Shown here piece by piece: positions 296 through 21,582 of a stretch of DNA of 21,997 nt. The notes beneath the pieces were generated by a model. The model saw only the letters and a program-made list of their open reading frames with translations. It was not told the DNA's origin and searched no databases. Positions within the stretch are counted from its first letter, which is position 1; each line of letters begins with the position of its first letter. This stretch comes from a virus: IMG/VR virus record IMGVR_UViG_3300030099_000084, positions 1-21,997 of that record, one strand, 5' to 3'. Both the position numbers and the translations under genes were made by a program.

Positions 296-1204
296 ATGGC
301 TATATCAAGAGCGCAACTCGTAAAAGAGTTAGAACCTGGTCTTAACGCTTTATTCGGCATGGAATATGATCGTTACGACAATCAGCATACTGAAATCTTT
401 GAGACAGAAACTTCAGATCGAGCATTCGAAGAAGAAGTGATGTTAAGTGGATTTGGTAATGCACAAACTAAATCTGAAGGTGCTGGTGTAGCATTTGATG
501 ATGCAAACGAAGTATATACTTCAAGATATACAATGGAAACAATTTCATTGGCTTTTGCTTTAACAGAAGAAGCTATGGAAGACAACTTGTATGATCAGCT
601 TGGAAGAAGATATACAAGAGCGTTAGCAAGATCAATGTCACACACAAAGCAAATCAAAGCCGCTGCAGTGTTAAACAATGCGTTTGACTCAAGCTTTACA
701 GGTGGTGATGGTAAAGAGCTTTGTGCAACAGACCATCCTTTAGGTGGTGGTGGTACATTCAGAAATGAATTTACTGTGGCTGCAGACCTTAATGAGACAT
801 CATTAGAAAATGCTCTTATTGACATTTCACAATTTGTTGATGAGAGAAATATGATTGTTGCTTTGAGAGGTATGAAGCTTATTGTTCCACCAGCATTACA
901 ATTCGTTGCTGATAGATTACTTGAGTCAACATTAAGAACAGGTACTTCTGACAATGATTTAAACGCAATCAAAAACATGGGTATGTTACCAGAGGGTTAT
1001 ACAATTAACCACTTCTTAACAGACACAGATGCGTTTTTCTTAAAGACAGATGCACCTAATGGTTTCAAGTATTTTGAAAGAACACCATTAAGTACAAGTA
1101 TGGAAGCTGATTTCGATACTGGTAACATGAGATATAAAGCTAGAGAGCGTTATGCCTTTGGTTTTTCAGATCCAAGATGTGTGTTCGGATCACCAGGCGC
1201 ATAA
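296..1204 (+). CDS. Major capsid protein (HK97-fold, Mu gpT-like)
   Basis: This 302-residue protein is the shell subunit of the head. It fits the Mu gpT-like / HK97-fold capsid family seen in many marine phages. Recognisable stretches are the N-terminal helix region with an ETETSDRAFEEE segment, the 'CATDHPLGGGG' loop near residue 143, the 'LIVPPALQFVADRLL' strand-helix near residue 196, 'LPEGYTINHFLTDTDAFFLKTD' and the C-terminal 'RYKARERYAFGFSDPRCVFGSPGA' region. It has no N-terminal scaffold-like extension. The start is set by a strong Shine-Dalgarno (AAGGGAGA, 281-288) before ATG 296. Strong terminators follow at once, as expected for the most abundantly made virion protein. Family identity is from remembered resemblance; the capsid role is secure from context. 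Confidence 0.9.
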   Translation: MAISRAQLVKELEPGLNALFGMEYDRYDNQHTEIFETETSDRAFEEEVMLSGFGNAQTKSEGAGVAFDDANEVYTSRYTMETISLAFALTEEAMEDNLYDQLGRRYTRALARSMSHTKQIKAAAVLNNAFDSSFTGGDGKELCATDHPLGGGGTFRNEFTVAADLNETSLENALIDISQFVDERNMIVALRGMKLIVPPALQFVADRLLESTLRTGTSDNDLNAIKNMGMLPEGYTINHFLTDTDAFFLKTDAPNGFKYFERTPLSTSMEADFDTGNMRYKARERYAFGFSDPRCVFGSPGA

Positions 1205-9642: not shown

Positions 9643-12183
9643 ATGAGCATAGTAAAAGCAAATGGTGCAGGAGAAAGTGGTGGCTTTTACAATGGGGTTG
9701 CCACTCAAGGGCTACGATTAAATGATGGTGCTAGTCAATATTTAAGCAGAACACCATCAAGTGCAGGCAACAGAAGAACTTTTACTTTTAGTGCGTGGAT
9801 TAAAAGAGCACAACTTGATGCCAATAATGTTGGTGGTGGTAGTGATACTCCAATAATTTCAGCAGGAACAGCTAGTGTTTTTGATGTTTTAAGATTTGTT
9901 TCTCAAAATTTTACAACGCCAAAAGATATATTACACGTTTATACTTATGACGGAAGTGCAGATTATTCAGAAGAAGTAAATAGGTCATTTCGAGATACAG
10001 CTAATTGGTATAATATTGTATGGGCAGTAGATACCACACAATCAACTGCTGGAAATAGAATTAAATATTACGTTAATGGCACATTGCAAACAGCAGTATC
10101 TCAATATTATGCACAAGTACCTCAAAATTATGACTTCTCATTTAATTCAACTAATGCACACTGGATTGGTAGGAATTTAAATTCAACAAGCAGATATTTT
10201 GATGGATACTTGGCAGAGGTTAATTTTGTTGATGGTTTGCAACTAGCTGCCGACAATTTTGGTCAGACAAAAAATAATATTTGGATTGCCAAAAATCCAG
10301 ATGTTTCAGATTATGGTACAAATGGTTTTAGATTACAATTCAAAGAGGTGGGAGGCTCTGCAAACTCAAGTGGCATAGGTGCTGATACAAGTGGTAAGGG
10401 TAATCATTTCACTCCAAATAATATTAATGGTATTGATAGTAACTTTAAAGATTGTCCTGAAAACGTCTATTGTGTGATGAACGAACTTGATAAAGGTGGT
10501 AATGTTACATTAGAAAAAGGCAACCTTTCTGTGCAATCTACTGCCGATGATATAACAACAAGCACATTTCATTTTGATGTCGCAACAAGCAAAGTGTATG
10601 CTGAGTTTTATATAAACTCTAGTCCTGGATTATCGACTGCTATAGGTATAACTGAAAGTAGTGTTGCGTCATCTATATCAGATGCGTCTGGAAGTAATGC
10701 AGCTAGTTACTGGTATAATGCAAATGGTCAAACAAGACACACGAGTTATGCAAACTATGGTAATACATTTGCTGCGTCTGACATAATAAGTATTAGAGTT
10801 GATGAAGGATCACTATTTTTTTACAAAAATGGCACTATACAAAATAGTGGCACTGCAGCTTTTACTAGTTTAACTGGTACTTATTCTATATCTGTGGGTG
10901 AGTTTTCAGGTACAAATATACAAATATTTGCTAATTTTGGGCAAGATAGCACTTTTGTCAATACAGTATCTCAAGGTAATAATACAGATGCAAATGGTGA
11001 GGGAGATTTCAAATACTCTGTACCTAGTGGACATACGGCTTTATGCACAAAAAATTTAGCTAATCCTACTATAGGTCCAGATTCTGATACTAATTCAGAT
11101 GATCATCATGACACAGTTCTTTATACTGGTAATGGCTCTACACAATCAATAACGGGTCTTAAGTTTAAACCAGATTGGACATGGAGTAAAGATTTAAGTG
11201 CTGTAGTGAATCATGTTCTAACTGATTCAACAAGGGGAGTGTATAAAGACTTGTTTTCAAGTAGTAATTCTGTACAATCAAATGATACTGCTGGAGTAAC
11301 TGCTTTTAATGCACCTTCTTCAGTTGGAGCAACTGATGGTGGTTTTAATTTAAGTTCTAGCACAAATCATAACGTATCAACTAATAGTTATGCTTCTTGG
11401 AACTGGAAAGCTAATGGTGGTACGACTTCAACTGATAGTAATGGCTCTATCTCATCAACAGTACAGGCAAACACAACTGCTGGATTTAGCATTATTAATT
11501 GGAATGGCAATGAAACAAATGGTGCGACTATTGGACATGGATTAGGAGCAGCAGTTGAGGTAATTTGGACAAAATGTTTTAGTCACGCAACAAGTTGGGT
11601 TTGTGGCATAGGTGGGGTTACTGGATTTAGTACTAATGATTATTTAAGTTTAAATTCATCAAATGCCAAAGCCTCTTTAACTAATTTCTATCAAGCATAT
11701 GGATCAAGCACTTTTACAGTGGGTGTTTCTAGTGCAGATGAAATGAATAGAAACACTGGTGGTGTGGCTAGAAATTATATTACATACTGTTTTCGTTCTA
11801 TTGATGGTTATTCAAAAATGGGTTTCTATGATGGCGATGGTTCAGTAGGACCCTTTGTGTTTACAGGATTTAGACCAGCACTAATTATAATTAAAAATAC
11901 TGGCGATGCTAATAATTGGCAGATCTATGATGACATGAGAATAGGAGTAGGGGTAACTTCACACACAATCAATCCAGTTCTATCTGCAATAGCACCAAAC
12001 CTAGCAACGCAAGAGTTTGATAGCCAATCATATCCTATATTAGATTTATTATCTAATGGATTTAGACTCAGACTAGCAGGTACAGGTTCAACATTAGCAC
12101 AAAATGTTAATAAAGCTACTGGTACAAGATATTTCTACATGGCTTTTGCACACTCACCATTCAAGTTTGCTAACGCATTTTAA
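9643..12183 (+). CDS. Large tail protein, LamG/SPRY-type lectin domains, likely host recognition
   Basis: This 846-residue protein is mostly beta. After a short base (MSIVKANGAGESGGFYNGV), residues about 25-215 form a LamG/concanavalin A-like jelly roll: 'LRLNDGASQYLSRTPSS', 'RRTFTFSAWIKRAQLD', 'YYVNGTLQTAVSQYY' and 'DGYLAEVNFVDG'. Residues about 290-450 look like a SPRY-type sandwich ('KVYAEFYINSSPGLSTAIGI', 'DIISIRVDEGSLFFYKNG'). A C-terminal part resembles the DUF7483-type domain of marine phages ('LYTGNGSTQSITGLKFKPDW', 'ASWNWKANGG', 'GFSIINWNGN', 'YFYMAFAHSPFKFAN'). These lectin-like folds usually bind carbohydrate, so this is the best candidate receptor-binding protein. Asp- and Asn-rich loops may hold calcium. 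A weak AGGA precedes the start. Confidence 0.75.
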   Translation: MSIVKANGAGESGGFYNGVATQGLRLNDGASQYLSRTPSSAGNRRTFTFSAWIKRAQLDANNVGGGSDTPIISAGTASVFDVLRFVSQNFTTPKDILHVYTYDGSADYSEEVNRSFRDTANWYNIVWAVDTTQSTAGNRIKYYVNGTLQTAVSQYYAQVPQNYDFSFNSTNAHWIGRNLNSTSRYFDGYLAEVNFVDGLQLAADNFGQTKNNIWIAKNPDVSDYGTNGFRLQFKEVGGSANSSGIGADTSGKGNHFTPNNINGIDSNFKDCPENVYCVMNELDKGGNVTLEKGNLSVQSTADDITTSTFHFDVATSKVYAEFYINSSPGLSTAIGITESSVASSISDASGSNAASYWYNANGQTRHTSYANYGNTFAASDIISIRVDEGSLFFYKNGTIQNSGTAAFTSLTGTYSISVGEFSGTNIQIFANFGQDSTFVNTVSQGNNTDANGEGDFKYSVPSGHTALCTKNLANPTIGPDSDTNSDDHHDTVLYTGNGSTQSITGLKFKPDWTWSKDLSAVVNHVLTDSTRGVYKDLFSSSNSVQSNDTAGVTAFNAPSSVGATDGGFNLSSSTNHNVSTNSYASWNWKANGGTTSTDSNGSISSTVQANTTAGFSIINWNGNETNGATIGHGLGAAVEVIWTKCFSHATSWVCGIGGVTGFSTNDYLSLNSSNAKASLTNFYQAYGSSTFTVGVSSADEMNRNTGGVARNYITYCFRSIDGYSKMGFYDGDGSVGPFVFTGFRPALIIIKNTGDANNWQIYDDMRIGVGVTSHTINPVLSAIAPNLATQEFDSQSYPILDLLSNGFRLRLAGTGSTLAQNVNKATGTRYFYMAFAHSPFKFANAF

Positions 12184-12751: not shown

Positions 12752-13327
12752 ATGCCCATTACGTCTTTAAAATTTAGACCAGGAATAAATAAAGAAACAA
12801 CATCATATTCAAATAAAGGTGGATGGAACGATTGTGATCTTGTTCGTTTTCGTTTTGGATACCCTGAAAAATTAGGTGGATGGGAGAAGTATTCAACAAA
12901 CACTTTTCTTGGAACATCAAGATCCCTACATACATGGGCAAATTTACAAGGCAATAGTTACTTAGGCATTGGAACACAAATAAAATTCTATATAGAAGAA
13001 TCAGAAGGTTATAATGATATAACACCACTTAGACGCAAAGTTGTAAATGATGTAGTTGTTTTTGATTTAGAGGGTGGTGTAGTCAAATCAGTAATCACTG
13101 GGAATGCAGGAACTGGCTCAGTTGGCACAGTTGTAATAGATCGAGCACAAACAGTGAGCGTTCAGTCAAATAATCCAGTAGAAAGTTTAAGAATATTAGC
13201 AACTGCATCTCTTGGCACAGTTACAATAAGCACGCCACCAGTTACAACTAACTTGGCTATGACTTCAGCAGTTGGAACTGTCACTGTATCAGTAAATGAT
13301 TTAAGTGTTTCTGTTGGTGGTTCTTGA
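12752..13327 (+). CDS. Tail hub (P22 gp10-like) protein, N-terminal part
   Basis: This 191-residue ORF begins 'MPITSLKFRPGINKETTSYS' and continues 'GGWNDCDLVRFRFGYPEKLG' and 'GW..Y' to 'LHTWANLQGNSYLGIGTQIK'. This is the conserved start of gp10-like packaged-DNA stabilisation (hub/nozzle) proteins of marine phages, whose remainder is encoded by the next ORF. After 'YNDITPLRRK' (residues 87-96) it has about 95 residues not usual at this place, with three Gly-Thr-Val motifs (SVGTVVID 123-130, SLGTVTIS 153-160, AVGTVTVS 173-180). It stops at TGA 13325-13327, one base before the next ATG. Only a weak ribosome binding site precedes ATG 12752. It may be one half of a frameshifted protein. Confidence 0.75.
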   Translation: MPITSLKFRPGINKETTSYSNKGGWNDCDLVRFRFGYPEKLGGWEKYSTNTFLGTSRSLHTWANLQGNSYLGIGTQIKFYIEESEGYNDITPLRRKVVNDVVVFDLEGGVVKSVITGNAGTGSVGTVVIDRAQTVSVQSNNPVESLRILATASLGTVTISTPPVTTNLAMTSAVGTVTVSVNDLSVSVGGS

Positions 13328-13328
13328 T

Positions 13329-14870
13329 ATGGCTATAACATTTATCACATCAACTTCAAGCACAAGTGTTACTGTAAATGATACTGATCATGGAGCTATC
13401 GCTGGAAGTTTTGTAACATTTAGTAATGCTAACACGGGAAATCTAGGTTTAAATTCTAAACTTAACAATGAATTTTCTATAACATCAATTACAGACATTA
13501 ATAGTTATGTCATAACTTTAAGTGCTAATGCAGACACTGCACTATCTAGTGCTGGTTCGGCTGATGCAGAATATCAACTTAATGTAGGTATTAATACAGT
13601 CGTGCCTGGTGATGGATGGGGTGCTGGAACTTGGGGTGCAGATGGATGGGGTTCTGCTTCTGGTGAAACTGCTGGTGGTGGCACTTTGCGTCTGTGGTCA
13701 CAAGATAATTTTGGTGAAGATTTAATATTTAATCAAAGAGATGGTTTTGTTTTTTATTGGGATAAGACTCTTGGCACGGGTGCAAGGGCAAAAAATTTAA
13801 TTGAGTTATCAGATGCTGCTCCGACTAAATCAAGAAAAGTTATTGTATCTGAAAGAGATCGTCATGTAATTTGCTTTGGTGCAAATCCAAGAGGAGAGAC
13901 AGTGCAAGACAGATTGCTTGTTCGTTTTAGTTCACAAGAAAATCCATTTTTATGGACTCCAACTGCCACAAATACTGCTGGTGATTTAAGGATTGGATCA
14001 GGGTCTGAAATTGTAACTGCTGTAAAAACAAGACGTGAAATAATAATTTTGACTGATTCATCTGTGCATAGTATGCAATTTATAGGACCTCCATTTACTT
14101 TTGGAATAAATCAATTAGCAAGTGCTATTACAGTAAGAGGATTTAATACAGCAGTAGCCGTAGGCGATAGTGTCTTTTGGATGGGATATGATAGATTTTA
14201 TATATATGATGGTCGTGTTCAAGTTATACCTTGTTCTGTAAGAGATCATGTTTTTCAAGATTTTAATGAAACACAATCTGACAAAGTTTATGCAGGTATA
14301 AATTCAGCTTTTGGTGAGGTTTTTTGGTTTTATCCATCTGAAACTAATTCTGGTGCTAATGGTGGCACAGATGAAAATGATAGATATGTGGTGTACAACT
14401 ATGATCAAAAAATATGGTATGTAGGTAATCTTTCAAGATCATCTTGGGTAGATAGAGGCGTGTATCAATATCCAATGGCAACAGATTCTAATCTTGTGTA
14501 CAACCATGAAAAAGGCAATGATAATGATGGCACTGCGTTTACATCTTTTATAGAGTCAAGTCCGATAGATATACAAGATGGAGATCAGTTTGTTTTTTTA
14601 AGAAGAATGATACCAGATGTTAGTTTTGATAATAGTGACAGTGGGTTGAGTAACGATAATAAACAAGCGATATTCTCTTTAAAAGCACAACGTAGTCCTG
14701 GTGGGGGTTTTATTAAAACATCAACTAATACTGTACTCCCCACAACTGAATTAAATCATTTAAGGTTGCGTGGTAGATCTTTTGGTTTAAGAGTAGAAAG
14801 CACAACACAAGGTGTTAACTGGAGATTAGGAACAAATAGGGTTGATATAAGAGCGGATGGTGACAGATGA
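13329..14870 (+). CDS. Tail hub (P22 gp10-like) protein, main part
   Basis: The 513-residue ORF carries the body of the hub/stabilisation protein. It contains 'SVTVNDTDHGAIAGSFVTFS' (13-32), the Trp/Gly motif 'DGWGAGTWGADGWGS' (95-109), 'LRLWSQDNFGEDLIFNQRDG', 'FYWDKTLGTGARA', 'LVRFSSQENPFLWTPTATNT', 'IILTDSSVHSMQFIGPPFTF', 'VFWMGYDRFYIYDGRVQVIP', and the ending 'RSFGLRVESTTQGVNWRLGT' plus 'NRVDIRADGDR'. Length and order fit the family once the preceding ORF is added (about 705 residues together). Start at ATG 13329 rather than GTG 13305, since 13329 is one base after the upstream TGA; a TAA in this frame at 13302 bars any longer form. The protein plugs the portal and forms the tail base. Confidence 0.8.
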   Translation: MAITFITSTSSTSVTVNDTDHGAIAGSFVTFSNANTGNLGLNSKLNNEFSITSITDINSYVITLSANADTALSSAGSADAEYQLNVGINTVVPGDGWGAGTWGADGWGSASGETAGGGTLRLWSQDNFGEDLIFNQRDGFVFYWDKTLGTGARAKNLIELSDAAPTKSRKVIVSERDRHVICFGANPRGETVQDRLLVRFSSQENPFLWTPTATNTAGDLRIGSGSEIVTAVKTRREIIILTDSSVHSMQFIGPPFTFGINQLASAITVRGFNTAVAVGDSVFWMGYDRFYIYDGRVQVIPCSVRDHVFQDFNETQSDKVYAGINSAFGEVFWFYPSETNSGANGGTDENDRYVVYNYDQKIWYVGNLSRSSWVDRGVYQYPMATDSNLVYNHEKGNDNDGTAFTSFIESSPIDIQDGDQFVFLRRMIPDVSFDNSDSGLSNDNKQAIFSLKAQRSPGGGFIKTSTNTVLPTTELNHLRLRGRSFGLRVESTTQGVNWRLGTNRVDIRADGDR

Positions 14871-15126: not shown

Positions 15127-15936
15127 ATGAGTTTAGGAAAATTATTTAAAGATTTAGCTCCTGTACTTATAGGTAGTGCTCTTGGTCCTGGCATAGGTTC
15201 TGCTATAGCTGGACAAGGTTTTAGTCCATTTGTTAGTAGATTAGCCACAGGAGCAATAACATCAAAGCTTATGGGTGGCAAAAACAAAGATGCTGTGCGA
15301 AATGCTTTACTCGCTGGCATAGGTGGTATGGCATTTGATCGTTTTGGAGGTGCAGAACAAGCTGTTTCTCAAGGTGGACAGGGAACATTTGTTCGGAGAG
15401 ATTTACCAGATTCAGAATTTATGGGTTCTGATAGCACAACAGGAGATGTGGTTTCTAAAACAGTGCCAGCAGATCAAGCATCAGAAAAAATAGCAGAGGC
15501 TTTTAAGCCTAAAACATTTAGTGGAGAATTGTTACAAGCAGCGGGTGTCGGTCAAGATAATTTGTTAGCTAGATTATTAAATACTAGAGTTGGAGAGGGC
15601 TTAACCGCAGGATTACTTGCACAATTACTTGCAGGAGATGATGAAGAAGATACTAGAAGAGAGTTTGAGAGAAGACCTTTTGGTCAAGGTGGACCTGGAG
15701 GTCAACTAGGTGGCATAAGATTTGCCGCAGATGGTGGCCAAATGGGATTTCCTAGAAGAACTGGAGGTATTGATCCATCAGAGGGATCTGGAACAAAAGA
15801 TGATGTACCAGCTATGTTAATGGCTGGTGAATTTGTGCTTACTAAAGATGCAGTCAAAGGTTTAGGAGATGGTAATCAACGTAAGGGTATACAAAGAGCT
15901 TATGATATGATGAGTAACTTGGAGGCTAGAGCATAA
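15127..15936 (+). CDS. Probable DNA-ejection / internal virion protein with glycine-zipper
   Basis: This 269-residue protein has Gly/Ala-rich hydrophobic N-terminal stretches ('APVLIGSALGPGIGSAIAGQ', residues 11-30, and 'ALLAGIGGMAFDRFGG', 60-75) that can act as glycine-zipper membrane segments. The middle is charged. Near the C-terminus 'DDVPAMLMAGEFVLTKDAVK' (225-244) and 'GLGDGNQRKGIQRAYDMMSN' form a motif ('[DE][DN]VPAML..GEFV.T..AV.G.G.GN...G....Y.MM..LE') shared by many marine podovirus tail/ejection proteins. It probably travels in the virion and enters the cell envelope during infection. A weak AAGG precedes ATG 15127, and a 32-base gap with no hairpin lies upstream. Confidence 0.7.
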   Translation: MSLGKLFKDLAPVLIGSALGPGIGSAIAGQGFSPFVSRLATGAITSKLMGGKNKDAVRNALLAGIGGMAFDRFGGAEQAVSQGGQGTFVRRDLPDSEFMGSDSTTGDVVSKTVPADQASEKIAEAFKPKTFSGELLQAAGVGQDNLLARLLNTRVGEGLTAGLLAQLLAGDDEEDTRREFERRPFGQGGPGGQLGGIRFAADGGQMGFPRRTGGIDPSEGSGTKDDVPAMLMAGEFVLTKDAVKGLGDGNQRKGIQRAYDMMSNLEARA

Positions 15937-16865
15937 TGGCAGTTCAAACAGTTGAAAATATACAAAGATTACCTCCGTTTTTAGAAGGGTTACAAAAACG
16001 CCTTTTACAAACTGGTTTTGGTGTATTTGATGGTGATACACAAACTGTTCCTGGTTTATTAGATAGACCATTAGGCTTACCTGGATTTCAAATTGCAGGA
16101 ACAGATCCTTTGCAAGATAAAGCCACACAACTTGGCGAGCAAATGACAGGTGCTTTTCAACCTTTCATACAAGGTGCGGCAGATCAATCATTAGCAGCAC
16201 AACAAGCTTTAACTAGTGGTCTAGGTTTTTTACAACCTGAATCAATTAAAAGATTTCAAGATCCATTTCAAGAGCAAGTAATTGATGTAGCAATGCGTCA
16301 ACTTAACAGACAAGCAGATTTGCGTAGAGCTGGTGCGGCTCAACAGGCAATTAAAGCAGGAGCATTTGGTGGGTCAAGAGAGGGTGTGCAGAGAGCAGAA
16401 ACAGAAAGAGGTTTGCAACAAGTTAAAGGTGACACTTTATCAAAACTATTATCACAAGGCTTTGGACAAGCTCTTAAAGCGTCACAAGATGCAGGAAGAT
16501 TGTCTGGTGGTATTGGTCAAGCGTTTGGAACATTAGCAGGCACAACAAGTGATTTAGGGCGTTTACAACAAGCTTTGGGTCAAGCAGACGTATCACAACT
16601 ATCACAGTTAGGTGCTCTAAGGCAAAGACAACAACAAGCAGGACTTGATGCAATGAGAGCAAACTTAATGCAACAAGCACAAGAGCCTTTTACAAGGTTG
16701 CAAATTGGTCAAAATTTACTACAAGGTATGCCAAGTGCAAGTATTCCATCTACATTTCAACAAGCTACAACTCCAAGTGCAAATCCATTTTTACAAGGTG
16801 TAGGTGCATATACAACATTATCACAAATAGCACCATTTGGTGGTGCTACAGCTAAAAGAGGCTAA
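15936..16865 (+). CDS. Probable internal virion protein, Gln/Ala-rich
   Basis: This 309-residue protein is rich in Gln, Ala, Leu and Gly. It begins MAVQTVENIQRLPPFLEGLQ, then 'LPGFQIAGTDPLQDKATQLG' and 'FQPFIQGAADQSLAAQQALT'. The core has 'FQDPFQEQVIDVAMRQLNRQ', 'AIKAGAFGGSREGVQRAETE' and a long Gln-rich helical region (about residues 185-260). 'AGAFGGSR..VQ.AE..R' with flanking coiled coil is a hallmark of a marine-phage internal/ejection family, in which the virion stores a long helical protein. It sits between two other ejection-like genes with TAATG coupling to the previous one. Enzymatic motifs are absent. Confidence 0.7.
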   Translation: MAVQTVENIQRLPPFLEGLQKRLLQTGFGVFDGDTQTVPGLLDRPLGLPGFQIAGTDPLQDKATQLGEQMTGAFQPFIQGAADQSLAAQQALTSGLGFLQPESIKRFQDPFQEQVIDVAMRQLNRQADLRRAGAAQQAIKAGAFGGSREGVQRAETERGLQQVKGDTLSKLLSQGFGQALKASQDAGRLSGGIGQAFGTLAGTTSDLGRLQQALGQADVSQLSQLGALRQRQQQAGLDAMRANLMQQAQEPFTRLQIGQNLLQGMPSASIPSTFQQATTPSANPFLQGVGAYTTLSQIAPFGGATAKRG

Positions 16866-16866
16866 A

Positions 16867-18615
16867 ATGGCACCTAAAAATCAAGGCATCATGCAAATAA
16901 GCCCTTTTTTACAAGAAAGACTTATTGGTAAAGACACAAGAAAAGGTCTAATTGGCAACATTGGAGATGCAGCAAATATTTTGTCAATGGAACAATTTGA
17001 TCCTAAAGCTCCTCAAACAGGGACAACAAGACAGGCCATAAGAGATATTTTAAAAGAACCTTTAAGATTTGGTTATAATGTTGTTTCAAACATTCCATCT
17101 GTTTTTCAAGGTATATCAAGAACTTTAGATGAACAAACAGATGAAGCAAGAGCAAAAAAAGCCTCAGATGTTGCACAAGCCATGTCTGGTGTTGAGTTTG
17201 GATTACCTCAAGATTTAGACGCAAGACAAAAAGGGACAATCTTTACACCAGAGGGACAAGAAGCTTTAGGTGCAGAAATATCAAAACAATTACAACCTAT
17301 ATTTACAAAAGAAACTGACGGCGATATTGCAGAGGAAGAAAATTTAATCGCAAGCGATGTAGCAACAGAGGAAAGTGATGAGAATTTATCTAATGCACAA
17401 AAGGCTACAAAAGGTGCCCTTGATGAATTTTTAAAAGAAGCAAGACCTGGTGTTAGCCCAAAAGAATATAAAGACTATATTGAGGAATTTGGCAAAGCCA
17501 CTGGCTTAGACATATCTGGTGACCCTGATACTAAACAAGCACTTATGTCATTCGGTTTGGCTCTTATGCAAAACAGAGCTGGCAAAGGATTTGATGTAAG
17601 CAAAATACTAACATCTGTGGGTGAGGCTGGAGAGGCTGCTATGCCAGAGTTTAGTAAAGCTGTTAGTGAGGCTAAAGCTATTAGAGCAAAAGCTGGTGCA
17701 TTTGCTATTAGCAGAAAGAAAGAAGATGAAGCCGAAGCAAGGAACAGAAAAAATTATGTTATAGTTCCAAAAGGCACTGGTGGAATAAAAGGACTTGCAG
17801 CTAATATGGATAAAGCAAGAAACATACCTTTAAACTCTTTTGAACTCAACGCATTATTAGAAAATGAAAATTTTAACAATCAGTTTGAAGTTGTGCCTGA
17901 TAGTCAATACAACAAAGTATTAGAGGCTGCACTAAAAACACCAGAACTTGGAAAAAAATATTTGACCAAAAGCAGCGAAATAGAATTGTTTGAGGATGCT
18001 GAAGGTATTTTTAAAGTTCCTGTCCAATTGGCTGATGGAAATTATAAGGGTGCAGATGCGGCAACAAAACCTTTATTTATAGGCGATAAAAAATCAGTTG
18101 AACAAGCCTTTAGATCTATGCGTAAAGACATAGATAGAGGTAAGGCACAATTTAAAGAATTAGTTGACGCAATTGAGTCACCAGGAGGCACAACAGTTTT
18201 CCAACAAGGTGCTGATGCTATTACAAATTTAGGTGCTGCTTTTGGAGTTGACTTTAAAGATGACCAGACAAAAACACAAAAAATTAAACTTATTTTAAAT
18301 AGAATACAATCAAAATATGCACCACAAATTTTAGGTGAAACAGGTAAAACTATTTCTGATGCAGATAGAGAAAGAGTGGCAAGAATTGTAGGTGAGTTAG
18401 GATTTTTTAACAATCCAGAGGATTTAAAAGCTGCAATTGGTAGAATTTTTGATGATATAATAGGTCAACAAGAAAGAAAACTTAAACAAGGTGTTTTAAA
18501 TTTTAATAGACTTACAGGACAACAAATTAGTTTAGATTTTGGTAGCGGTTTAAATGAAAAACAAAAATCAGAATTGGCAGCTTATGAACAAAGATTTAGT
18601 CAACAACAAACATAG
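16867..18615 (+). CDS. Probable internal virion/ejection protein
   Basis: This 582-residue protein starts at ATG 16867, one base after the previous gene; a longer in-frame start at 16837 would run into it. It begins MAPKNQGIMQISPFLQERLI and is mostly alpha-helical with acidic linkers. A distinctive stretch is 'ALMSFGLALMQNRAGKGFDV' (about residues 225-244), then 'GEAGEAAMPEFSKAVSEAKA', common to marine podovirus ejection proteins. The remainder has charged helices and an 'ENLNSL'-free soluble C-terminal half. It has no clear membrane segment, which suggests a lumenal or periplasm-spanning part of the ejection apparatus. The function is from family resemblance and position. Confidence 0.65.
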   Translation: MAPKNQGIMQISPFLQERLIGKDTRKGLIGNIGDAANILSMEQFDPKAPQTGTTRQAIRDILKEPLRFGYNVVSNIPSVFQGISRTLDEQTDEARAKKASDVAQAMSGVEFGLPQDLDARQKGTIFTPEGQEALGAEISKQLQPIFTKETDGDIAEEENLIASDVATEESDENLSNAQKATKGALDEFLKEARPGVSPKEYKDYIEEFGKATGLDISGDPDTKQALMSFGLALMQNRAGKGFDVSKILTSVGEAGEAAMPEFSKAVSEAKAIRAKAGAFAISRKKEDEAEARNRKNYVIVPKGTGGIKGLAANMDKARNIPLNSFELNALLENENFNNQFEVVPDSQYNKVLEAALKTPELGKKYLTKSSEIELFEDAEGIFKVPVQLADGNYKGADAATKPLFIGDKKSVEQAFRSMRKDIDRGKAQFKELVDAIESPGGTTVFQQGADAITNLGAAFGVDFKDDQTKTQKIKLILNRIQSKYAPQILGETGKTISDADRERVARIVGELGFFNNPEDLKAAIGRIFDDIIGQQERKLKQGVLNFNRLTGQQISLDFGSGLNEKQKSELAAYEQRFSQQQT

Positions 18616-18624
18616 ACAATTAAA

Positions 18625-21582
18625 ATGAAGCCTGAAGAAAGATTAACATTATTTAATGCTCTTAAAACTAATGTATTTAGCAAACCAGAAGAAAGATTAG
18701 CAGCGTTCCAGGCGTTAGAACGCAATGATGAAGATGTTGATAATTTACTAAGAGCAGTTCAATTTAATACATTAACAAAACAAACATCATTTGATGAATT
18801 ATCTGCAGATTCTTCTAAAGATGAGAATTTTGACTATGAAACTGGTGCAGACTCTGGGCTTAGAGCACTTTTATCTTTTGGTGAATCTGATAAAGATCAA
18901 GAAGCTATTTTAACAAAACTTGTGGGAGCTGATGGATTTACAAGAGATAGCTCTGGTAGATTAGCATTAACAGTTAAAGGTCAAAGAGCTAGAGGTATCG
19001 AGCCAACAGGTAAAAATTTAGTTATTGAAGATGAGGGTTTTTCTTTTGGAGATATAGCTGATCTAACTGGATTTGTACCTGAAACTGTTGGTGCCATATC
19101 TGGTGCTATAATTGGATTACCTGGCTTAGTCACAAGTGCTGCAGGAGCTGCGGCAGGTGCAGCTATAGGTCAAAGCCTTGAAGAAGGTATTGAAAGTTTA
19201 ATTGGTGTACAAAAACAATCTGCAAGCGAAGTTGCTGAAGATGTGCTTACAGAGGCAGCACTTGCTGGTGCTTTTGAGTTTGCTGGAGGTGCAATATTTA
19301 AGGCTGGTCGTGCTTTAGTAGGCGGCACAAGAAAAGTAGTTGATAAAGCAGGTAAACTGCAAACTGTTAAAGATGAAAATTTAGCTAGAGCAGATAGGCT
19401 TTTAGATGAGGGATTTATTCCTAGTGCAGAGCGTTTGGGTGCTCCTGGAATGGTTGCATATCAACAAAAATTTGCTGAAAATGTTATGAGAGATAGCACT
19501 AGAATAGAAAAGAATATTGCTGCTGCTTTATCTAAAGCTACTGAATTAAGACAAGCACACACTAGAGGGCAAGCGGCGGCTGCAACTGAGGGTTTTGAAA
19601 ACTTATCTAAAGGTCAATACAATACTCTTAAACAAGCACAGGAAGATGCTTCGAATGCAGCAATGAAAGCTGTAAATGACAGTATAAATTATATTCAAAA
19701 AGCCACAAAAAATGATGCTACTATTAACGAGCAAATCTTAAAATCCATTGATAATGCGTTTCAAAAATTTGAAACAGATATTGCAGCAGACTTTGCACAA
19801 GTAGATGAAATATTAAAATCAGTTAATATTAAAGGTGCTGGAAACGCACAAATAGCACAAGTAATACCGACCAACCCACTTAAACAACAATTTGAAACTT
19901 TAATTGGACAAGCTGGTGGTTTACAAACTGCAGGACCTAGTATGCAACAAGCTTTTGAAGCCTTTAGAGGTCTTGGAGAATTTGCTAGTTTTAGACAAGT
20001 GGTTCTTTTGCGAAAACAATTTAATGACGCTTTATACAAAGAGAGTGCTTTGTTTCAAAGAGAGTTAGGCCCAGAAATAAATACTTTAATTAATAATTTA
20101 GATAAATTAGTTGAAGGTACAAATTTATCAGACTTAACAGCTCTTAAAAACTTAACAAAAACTCAAAGGGATAAACTTAAAGAGGCATCTGATCTTAGAA
20201 AAAATGTAATGATACGTTACAAAAATCAACGTAAAATGTTTGAAGACTTAGATACCTTTGGAGTTATAAGATCGTTAAGAAATTTTGGTAAAAATACAGA
20301 CCAAAGGAAGTTTGAAATAGATAGATTTTTTGAAAGAGTTATTAAACAGGATAGTCCTGAAAGACTTAAACAATTGTTTAAAGCAATAGGCGATGATGAA
20401 GCACAATTGTTGAAAAGTGAATTGAGTAGAACATACTTAGAAAAAGGTATTCAAAAAACTGGTTTAAATGAATTTGGTGAGTTAACAAATGGTAAATTCA
20501 GTGGTGCTGCTTTTAACAATCACATACAAAAATTAGGTGATACTGGCAAACAATTATTTGGTAATCAATGGGATGAAGTTAAAAAACTTGGAGAAATTAT
20601 AGCAAGGTCTGGTACAGACAAAATAGATAAAGCAACAGTTGATCAAATAATAAAAAGATCAACAGACCAAAACAAACCTTTAGTACAAGCTTTAAAAGAT
20701 GTTGCAGATGCAAAAGAAGCTTTTGCTAAAGCACAAGAAGTTACAATAATTAAAAAGTTTAATGAGGGCACATTAGATCCTATAGATGCAGTTCAAATAT
20801 TAGCAACACCAAAAAGAATATCTTTGAATGAAGCTAAAAAATTTATGAAATTTTTTGAAAAAGATCCACAAGCATTAGAAGATATAAGAACATTTGTTGT
20901 TGAGGATATTTTATCAAGAGTGGATGGAGATGTTTTTAGCAGTAAAGCTGCCGCTTCACAATTATTAAAACATTTAGACAGTTTTGACGATAACGTATTG
21001 CGAACAATTTTAGGAGATGAACCAGTAACTGCGTTAAAAGAATTTGCTAAAGATTTGGATTTTTTAAATGATATTGGTAGAGAGGGTAATGTAGCTGCGG
21101 CTAGTTATACATCTAATCCTATTAATAAATATAGAGATATTATTAAATTTAAAATATTTAATAAAATTGGCAGTAATCCAGAAGTAGCAAGACGATATGT
21201 TGATATGCAAAAGAATTTACGAAGAAATGATGCTAATGGATCAGCTATTAATAGCAGAGTTGCAAATACAGTTGAAGATGCTGCAAACAAAGTTCTAAAT
21301 GTTACCGACAATATAGCTAGAGTTGGCAGACAAGCATTAGCACAAGCAGTTGGACCAGGACAAGATGATGGCAGAGCACAGGCTAGAAGAGTAACTCAAG
21401 CTCCATTCACAGTACAACCAGCATCAAATGTAAGTGCCGTTGGTGGTATTGATATAACCTCCCCTGGCGTTGGTGCAGCACTTGGGTTAAACCCATCTGA
21501 TTTAGCAATAGCGTCAAGAACAAGATCAAAGTCACCATTAACAGTACAAAATTTAAATTTTAGTGAGTTATTTAACAGATGA
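18625..21582 (+). CDS. Large internal virion/ejection protein with glycine-zipper segment
   Basis: At 985 residues this is the largest protein in the window. The N-terminus has a short direct repeat 'KPEERLTLFNAL' (2-13) and 'KPEERLAAFQAL' (20-31). Residues 152-190 form a Gly/Ala-rich hydrophobic region ('PETVGAISGAIIGLPGLVTS', then 'AAGAAAGAAIGQSLEEGIES') able to cross a membrane, followed by 'VQKQSASEVAEDVLTEAALA'. The rest is long, charged and helical, with no recognised peptidase or transglycosylase motif. A very large, helical, glycine-zipper protein after two others matches the T7 gp14-15-16 style ejection set. It ends by overlapping the lysozyme as ATGA. A weak ribosome binding site precedes ATG 18625. 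Confidence 0.7.
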   Translation: MKPEERLTLFNALKTNVFSKPEERLAAFQALERNDEDVDNLLRAVQFNTLTKQTSFDELSADSSKDENFDYETGADSGLRALLSFGESDKDQEAILTKLVGADGFTRDSSGRLALTVKGQRARGIEPTGKNLVIEDEGFSFGDIADLTGFVPETVGAISGAIIGLPGLVTSAAGAAAGAAIGQSLEEGIESLIGVQKQSASEVAEDVLTEAALAGAFEFAGGAIFKAGRALVGGTRKVVDKAGKLQTVKDENLARADRLLDEGFIPSAERLGAPGMVAYQQKFAENVMRDSTRIEKNIAAALSKATELRQAHTRGQAAAATEGFENLSKGQYNTLKQAQEDASNAAMKAVNDSINYIQKATKNDATINEQILKSIDNAFQKFETDIAADFAQVDEILKSVNIKGAGNAQIAQVIPTNPLKQQFETLIGQAGGLQTAGPSMQQAFEAFRGLGEFASFRQVVLLRKQFNDALYKESALFQRELGPEINTLINNLDKLVEGTNLSDLTALKNLTKTQRDKLKEASDLRKNVMIRYKNQRKMFEDLDTFGVIRSLRNFGKNTDQRKFEIDRFFERVIKQDSPERLKQLFKAIGDDEAQLLKSELSRTYLEKGIQKTGLNEFGELTNGKFSGAAFNNHIQKLGDTGKQLFGNQWDEVKKLGEIIARSGTDKIDKATVDQIIKRSTDQNKPLVQALKDVADAKEAFAKAQEVTIIKKFNEGTLDPIDAVQILATPKRISLNEAKKFMKFFEKDPQALEDIRTFVVEDILSRVDGDVFSSKAAASQLLKHLDSFDDNVLRTILGDEPVTALKEFAKDLDFLNDIGREGNVAAASYTSNPINKYRDIIKFKIFNKIGSNPEVARRYVDMQKNLRRNDANGSAINSRVANTVEDAANKVLNVTDNIARVGRQALAQAVGPGQDDGRAQARRVTQAPFTVQPASNVSAVGGIDITSPGVGAALGLNPSDLAIASRTRSKSPLTVQNLNFSELFNR

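What the first reader, a model, noticed from the sequence alone, without database searches (positions are those of the whole stretch)
12752..14870. Tail hub gene split into two frames at a possible +1 recoding site
The conserved start of a gp10-like hub (12752-13327) and its body (13329-14870) are normally one protein in relatives as I remember them. Here the first ORF ends GGT GGT TCT TGA, and a +1 shift at the TGA gives GAT ATG in the second frame, yielding one protein of about 705 residues. A GGTGG (13316-13320) lies just before the shift, which recalls the prfB +1 site. However UCU to CUU is a poor slip, so simple stop/re-start (TGATATG) is as likely.
Basis: partly seen in the sequence, partly recalled or inferred. 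Interest (0 to 1): 0.55.

Follow-up and report, generated by a model that had tools for sequence, protein, structure and literature searches.

The report
Phage tail nozzle made from two genes
A phage tail protein that is one chain in known relatives is encoded here by two abutting genes; related ocean phages share the break, so it looks like a stable two-gene arrangement and not a ribosomal frameshift site.

Summary
The two ORFs and the GGTGGTTCTTGATATG junction are real and correctly placed. The +1 recoding idea is not supported. In 84 further IMG/VR contigs that hold both parts, the gene is broken at the same place, but the second gene lies in all three frames relative to the first (of 85 records with the window: 33 in +2, 33 in +1, 19 in the same frame after a stop). 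TGA occurs only in the window. What is constant is a second gene that starts ATGGC within 6 nt of the first gene's stop, so GGTGG is best read as its ribosome-binding site. By profile and predicted fold the pair is a podovirus tail nozzle/hub (P22 gp10 type). The 163 loci classified outside the clade all have one frame. The break falls, by inference, where SU10 nozzles insert domains between propeller blades 2 and 3. Most likely ORF A (platform part, about two blades, a variable tail) and ORF B (the rest) are made by termination-reinitiation and assemble as two chains. The A tail has been exchanged between phages. The conserved split is shown; coupling and assembly in trans are inferred.

The parts
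12752..13327 (+). ORF A: N-terminal part of the tail nozzle (platform start and first propeller strands) plus a variable tail; stop TGA
13034..13324 (+). Variable tail of ORF A, absent from the nearest fused relative L318; low-confidence in the model; exchanged between phages
13316..13320 (+). GGTGG, 8 nt before ATG 13329: likely Shine-Dalgarno site of ORF B
13325..13331 (+). TGA stop of A, one base, ATG start of B
13329..14870 (+). ORF B: beta domain, remaining propeller blades and platform end of the nozzle

Best explanation
ORF A and ORF B are two genes left by a fission of a podovirus tail nozzle/hub gene (P22 gp10 type). Ribosomes that end A restart at the adjacent ATG of B, helped by a Shine-Dalgarno site at the end of A. 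The two chains assemble into one nozzle subunit: A gives the start of the platform and about two blades of a seven-bladed propeller, B gives a small beta domain, the other blades and the rest of the platform. The break lies where SU10 nozzle proteins insert extra domains between blades 2 and 3, so both new ends would sit on that insertion. The A tail is a variable module that has been swapped between phages, at times with its stop and the start site of B. Shown by sequence: the conserved split, one clade, varying frames, the start-site signal, tail exchange. Inferred: reinitiation itself, assembly in trans, the blade mapping and the place on the particle.
For: Split in 85 of 85 records of the clade that hold both parts, window included; 67 distinct junctions. 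One frame in 159 of 159 classified loci outside it, 10 of them cultured phages, and in 4 of 4 MAG contigs; the nearest, L318, is 64% identical to A 1-95 and 50% to B. Tree: split rows on one side of one branch, SH-aLRT 100. ATGGC starts B in 67 of 67. Duplex energy with the 16S end: mean -7.0 at 67 B starts against -4.15 at 2,724 internal ATGs. Gaps of -1, +1 or +3 nt lie in the -8 to +10 nt range that PMC10666635 takes as predictive of reinitiation; such pairs were enriched for subunits of complexes (passages). Read-through model: Z 29.4 to Pa223 (466 aligned, 4.3 A), 24.1 to P22 gp10 (416, 4.3 A), over its whole length. B alone: 21.1 (375, 7.8 A) and 16.2 (324, 5.2 A), and pLDDT 35-55 at B 371-410, where the joint model has 73-90. 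A's N part is under purifying selection: window against L006, 29 synonymous codon changes, 5 amino-acid changes.
Against: No protein data. The joint model used a read-through query and fused relatives, so A-B contact is partly built in; the B-alone model had fewer rows (50 against 77), its confidence is lower in other parts too, and losing about 90 aligned residues is expected when A is removed. SD signal: a quarter (25.6%) of internal ATGs reach the median of the B starts and 8.2% reach the window's; the TAATG group is weaker (mean -5.28, 26 junctions); the A start itself is weak (-3.46, n = 46). Rows are related, so the p-value of that call is not literal. A low level of fused product in the window is not excluded.
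Confidence: 0.8

Rival explanations
1. Programmed +1 frameshifting at the TGA joins A and B into one protein of 705 residues.
For: SD-like GGTGG before a TGA and an overlap of 20 nt with B's frame in the window; the joined product folds like known nozzles.
Against: Frame relation not constant (33, 33, 19 of 85); four different last codons in 24 distinct +1 junctions and TGA in 1 of 67; no structure beyond shuffles at the window's junction (z 0.25 and 0.74).
Confidence: 0.04
2. Two genes as above, but B is translated from its own start site without coupling to A.
For: Strong SD in many members, strongest in the in-frame group (mean -9.8, 17 junctions).
Against: Gap never above +3 nt in 85 of 85, where coupling is common (PMC10666635); weak SD in the TAATG group.
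Confidence: 0.1
3. A and B are made as two chains but do not rebuild one propeller: B works alone or with rearranged blades, and A has another role in the virion.
For: B alone still models as a propeller-like nozzle (Z 21.1 to Pa223); nothing here shows that A binds B.
Against: A's first 96 residues keep the family sequence and stay adjacent to B in all 85 records; fit and confidence are better with A.
Confidence: 0.12
4. Sequencing or assembly error in a normal single gene.
For: Only a one-base step separates the frames in the window.
Against: Same break in 84 other contigs, each with a stop followed by ATGGC and an added tail.
Confidence: 0.01

Closest known systems
Podovirus tail hub/nozzle: P22 gp10, SU10 gp17, Vibrio phage VP1 gp16, Pseudomonas phage Pa223 tail chain; T7 nozzle more distantly
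   Same: Profile match (PHROG 3287; PDB 9nwi_Y and 8zkk_O) and whole-length fold match of the read-through model (T7 only in the list).
   Different: One chain there; two genes here, with an extra tail of about 95 residues on the first.
Fused relatives: DSL-LC04 (622 aa), HTVC027P (654), HTVC023P (711), CRP-902 (707), MAG contig L318 (629)
   Same: Same N part, beta insert and body in the same order.
   Different: Unbroken frame; L318 passes from DITPIRKTTTG straight into AATF without the tail.
Termination-reinitiation gene pairs (PMC10666635, passages)
   Same: Gap of -1, +1 or +3 nt and a start-site signal at the end of the first gene.
   Different: Coupling not measured here; the pair comes from the fission of one structural protein.
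prfB-type +1 frameshift (recalled, no call)
   Same: SD-like sequence before a TGA.
   Different: No conserved shift codon, stop or frame in relatives.

Membership tests
Podovirus tail nozzle/hub (P22 gp10 type) | Family sequence profile over both parts | tested here: met
   PHROG 3287 hit by A and by B in consecutive profile ranges; nozzle chains in PDB hit by the joint alignment
Podovirus tail nozzle/hub (P22 gp10 type) | Platform plus seven-bladed propeller fold | tested here: met
   Read-through model, mean pLDDT 76.8, matches 9nwi_Y (Z 29.4) and 8eap_D (Z 24.1) over its whole length; a prediction, and of the joined chain
Podovirus tail nozzle/hub (P22 gp10 type) | Hexamer below the adaptor in the virion | not testable with these tools
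   needs a structure or virion proteomics
Programmed +1 frameshift (prfB type) | Constant +1 relation of the two frames among homologues | tested here: not met
   +1 in 33, +2 in 33, in-frame in 19 of 85
Programmed +1 frameshift (prfB type) | Conserved shift codon and stop | tested here: not met
   TCT 16, GGT 4, GGA 3, TCA 1 of 24 distinct +1 junctions; TGA 1 of 67
Programmed +1 frameshift (prfB type) | Fused product made | not testable with these tools
   no protein data
Termination-reinitiation pair | Overlap or gap within about -8 to +10 nt | tested here: met
   -1, +1 or +3 nt in 85 of 85
Termination-reinitiation pair | Start-site signal for the second gene inside the first | tested here: met
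   mean -7.0 against -4.15 at internal ATGs, but weaker in the TAATG group and reached by 25.6% of internal ATGs at the median
Termination-reinitiation pair | Translation of B depends on translation of A | not testable with these tools
   needs reporters

The most novel reading that the evidence does not exclude
A group of phages builds its tail nozzle from a beta-propeller split over two chains: about two blades come from one protein and the rest from another, made in step by coupled translation. The split turned the insertion point on the outer tail into two free ends, one of which carries a variable module that recombines between phages, at times together with its own stop codon and the start site of the next gene.
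Probability: 0.5. Interest if true: 0.5.

Novelty: new variant of a known kind. Interest (0 to 1): 0.4.

Why it matters
It removes a recoding candidate and gives a case of a conserved gene fission in a virion structural protein, with frame changes that show why relatives should be checked before recoding is proposed. If the two chains assemble in trans, the split nozzle is a natural test of how a propeller closes from two chains and why a variable module sits at that point of the tail.

Tried and rejected
Homology of the A tail with the beta domain at the start of B (a tandem duplication before the split): no profile similarity (probability 0.3%), nor with the insert of L318 (1.2%). Solved relatives of the A tail: 3 hits with E 0.37 to 0.9, none convincing. 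RNA structure at the junction: two window stretches z 0.25 and 0.74, L001 -0.10, L014 -1.39, L010 1.44. TGA read as sense: rejected, as TGA ends 7 of the 24 main ORFs listed, A and B among them.

Papers: the listings showed no title or abstract start about a split nozzle/hub gene; the listings were capped (for example 15 of 193, 10 of 72). Passages were read of PMC10666635, PMC9599517 (nozzle, gp10, tail hub and stabilization do not occur in its main text) and PMC9509320.

Rows dropped: L079, L145, L150 and L312 have no N part; three fused rows (L204, L105, L089) were left out of the tree because a text pattern missed their body start; L020 was left out of the identity table because its motif differs; L313 and L317 are cut by the contig end, so the body identity of L313 is not meaningful. 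The tail-swap count was 10 of 35 and 8 of 35 when repeated with rounded values: two pairs lie at 0.65.

Full report
What is there. The window is an IMG/VR virus record of 21,997 bases. ORF A (12752-13327, 191 aa) ends GGT GGT TCT TGA, and ORF B (ATG 13329 to 14870, 513 aa) starts one base later. Both ORFs match PHROG 3287 in consecutive parts of its profile. Cultured relatives carry one long gene: DSL-LC04 622 aa, CRP-902 707 aa, HTVC027P 654 aa, HTVC023P 711 aa.

The break is shared. Of 80 IMG/VR loci fetched with B (the best 80 of 131), 79 hold A upstream, and all 79 are broken at the same place. A second scan added 5 contigs, also broken, one of them identical over its length to an earlier locus. 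With the window this makes 85 records and 67 distinct junction sequences. Outside the clade, 159 of 159 loci that could be classified have one frame (317 examined: 154 split, counting refetched copies and the window, 159 fused, 4 without the N part). These were fetched with two fused proteins as queries, so they are a sample. The 4 contigs found in GTDB genomes are also unbroken. On a tree of 84 body sequences the 66 split rows lie on one side of one branch (SH-aLRT 100, quick method; long branches meet near that point, so the exact sister group is unsure).

It does not look like recoding. A frameshift that joined A and B would need a constant frame relation. It is +2 in 33, +1 in 33 and in-frame after a stop in 19 of the 85 records, and at least 19 changes are needed on the tree, of which 23 of 81 inner branches are weakly supported. 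The stop is TAA in 81, TAG in 3 and TGA in the window alone. In the 24 distinct +1 junctions the last sense codon is TCT (16), GGT (4), GGA (3) or TCA (1). GGTGGTTCT before the stop occurs in 9 of 67 junctions and is followed by TGA only in the window. In the in-frame group B's frame is not open upstream of A's stop (19 of 19 records). The window's junction RNA is no more structured than shuffles.

What is constant is a start site. B begins ATGGC in 67 of 67 distinct junctions, 2, 4 or 6 nt after the first base of the stop, a gap of -1, +1 or +3 nt. The stretch before B pairs with the 16S 3' end at -7.0 kcal/mol on average (67 junctions), against -4.15 for 2,724 internal ATGs and -3.46 for 46 starts of A. 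The in-frame group is strongest (-9.8), the TAATG group weakest (-5.28). A quarter of internal ATGs (25.6%) reach the median of the B starts and 8.2% reach the window's -8.5, so the signal is a tendency. The GGTGG that recalled prfB lies 8 nt before the ATG and is best read as this site. Gaps of this size are usual in the window. PMC10666635 (passages) takes gaps of -8 to +10 nt as predictive of termination-reinitiation and finds such pairs enriched for subunits of heteromeric complexes.

What it encodes. A joint alignment of 77 rows finds the solved nozzles 9nwi_Y (1.1e-28) and 8zkk_O (5.3e-15). An AlphaFold2 model of the read-through product (mean pLDDT 76.8) is confident over A residues 31-90 (block means 79-91) and most of B, and not over the A tail (100-192). 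It matches tail chains of Pa223 (Z 29.4), VP1 (26.7), SU10 (26.7) and P22 gp10 (24.1) over its whole length. Most WD40 propellers listed align from about residue 32-45, inside A, to about 583-602, some to 690-694. Modelled alone (50 rows), B falls to Z 21.1 and 16.2 against Pa223 and P22 gp10, with 375 and 324 aligned residues in place of 466 and 416 and rmsd 7.8 and 5.2 in place of 4.3. Its confidence falls to 35-55 at B 371-410, where the joint model has 73-90, and to 67-73 at B 121-160, where the joint model has 87-92. Part of this is expected from the loss of A and of rows; it fits A supplying strands next to the last blade. The SU10 paper (passages) describes a seven-bladed propeller with nozzle domains inserted between blades 2 and 3. 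The strands of A, followed by the tail and the beta domain of B, would put the break at that insertion; this mapping is my inference.

A variable module. L318 passes from DITPIRKTTTG directly to AATFSATDG. The split clade has about 95 extra residues, a stop, a start site and (M)AITF at that point. Between pairs of 62 distinct records this tail is 60.6% identical on average, against 80.4% for the N part, 73.5% for the start of B and 80.7% for the body. Among pairs whose flanks are both close, 10 of 35 have a tail under 65% identical (8 of 35 without two borderline pairs); of the other 19 windows along A and B, 17 have none, and two have 3 of 21 (overlapping the tail) and 2 of 32. The pairs are not independent: 4 of the 8 involve L015 and 3 involve L041. 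In 4 of the 8, all with close flanks and a foreign tail, the offset of B differs as well, as in L037 against L041. So the tail can move with its stop and start site, which can explain part of the frame changes: 10 of the 35 pairs differ in offset, and 4 of these have a foreign tail by this measure. The tail is less constrained than the N part (window against L006: 15 amino-acid and 14 synonymous changes, against 5 and 29).

Limits. There is no protein evidence. Assembly in trans rests on predictions that used fused relatives. Rows are related, so the statistics describe and do not test. A little fused product in the window cannot be ruled out.

Noticed in passing
L070-L072 (510 nt more in ORF B), L073-L076 (261 nt), L247 (288 nt): These clade members carry an extra stretch in ORF B after about residue 103. 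Similar ...DATGI...LTVTRG-like segments stand at other points of nozzle proteins such as CRP-902, HTVC023P, 023Pt_psg01, L319 and L320, so it may be a mobile insert domain.
   Followed up: partly
window 9643-12183: 846-aa tail fibre-like protein with DUF7483 and a weak SPRY match below its cut-off.
   Followed up: no
window 296-1204 and 15936-16865: Major head protein (PHROG 371) and a gene like a DNA ejection protein (PHROG 4287), which with the nozzle point to a short-tailed phage.
   Followed up: no
window 18625-21582 and 16837-18615: 985-aa and 592-aa ORFs downstream of the nozzle without a PHROG match at the thresholds used.
   Followed up: no
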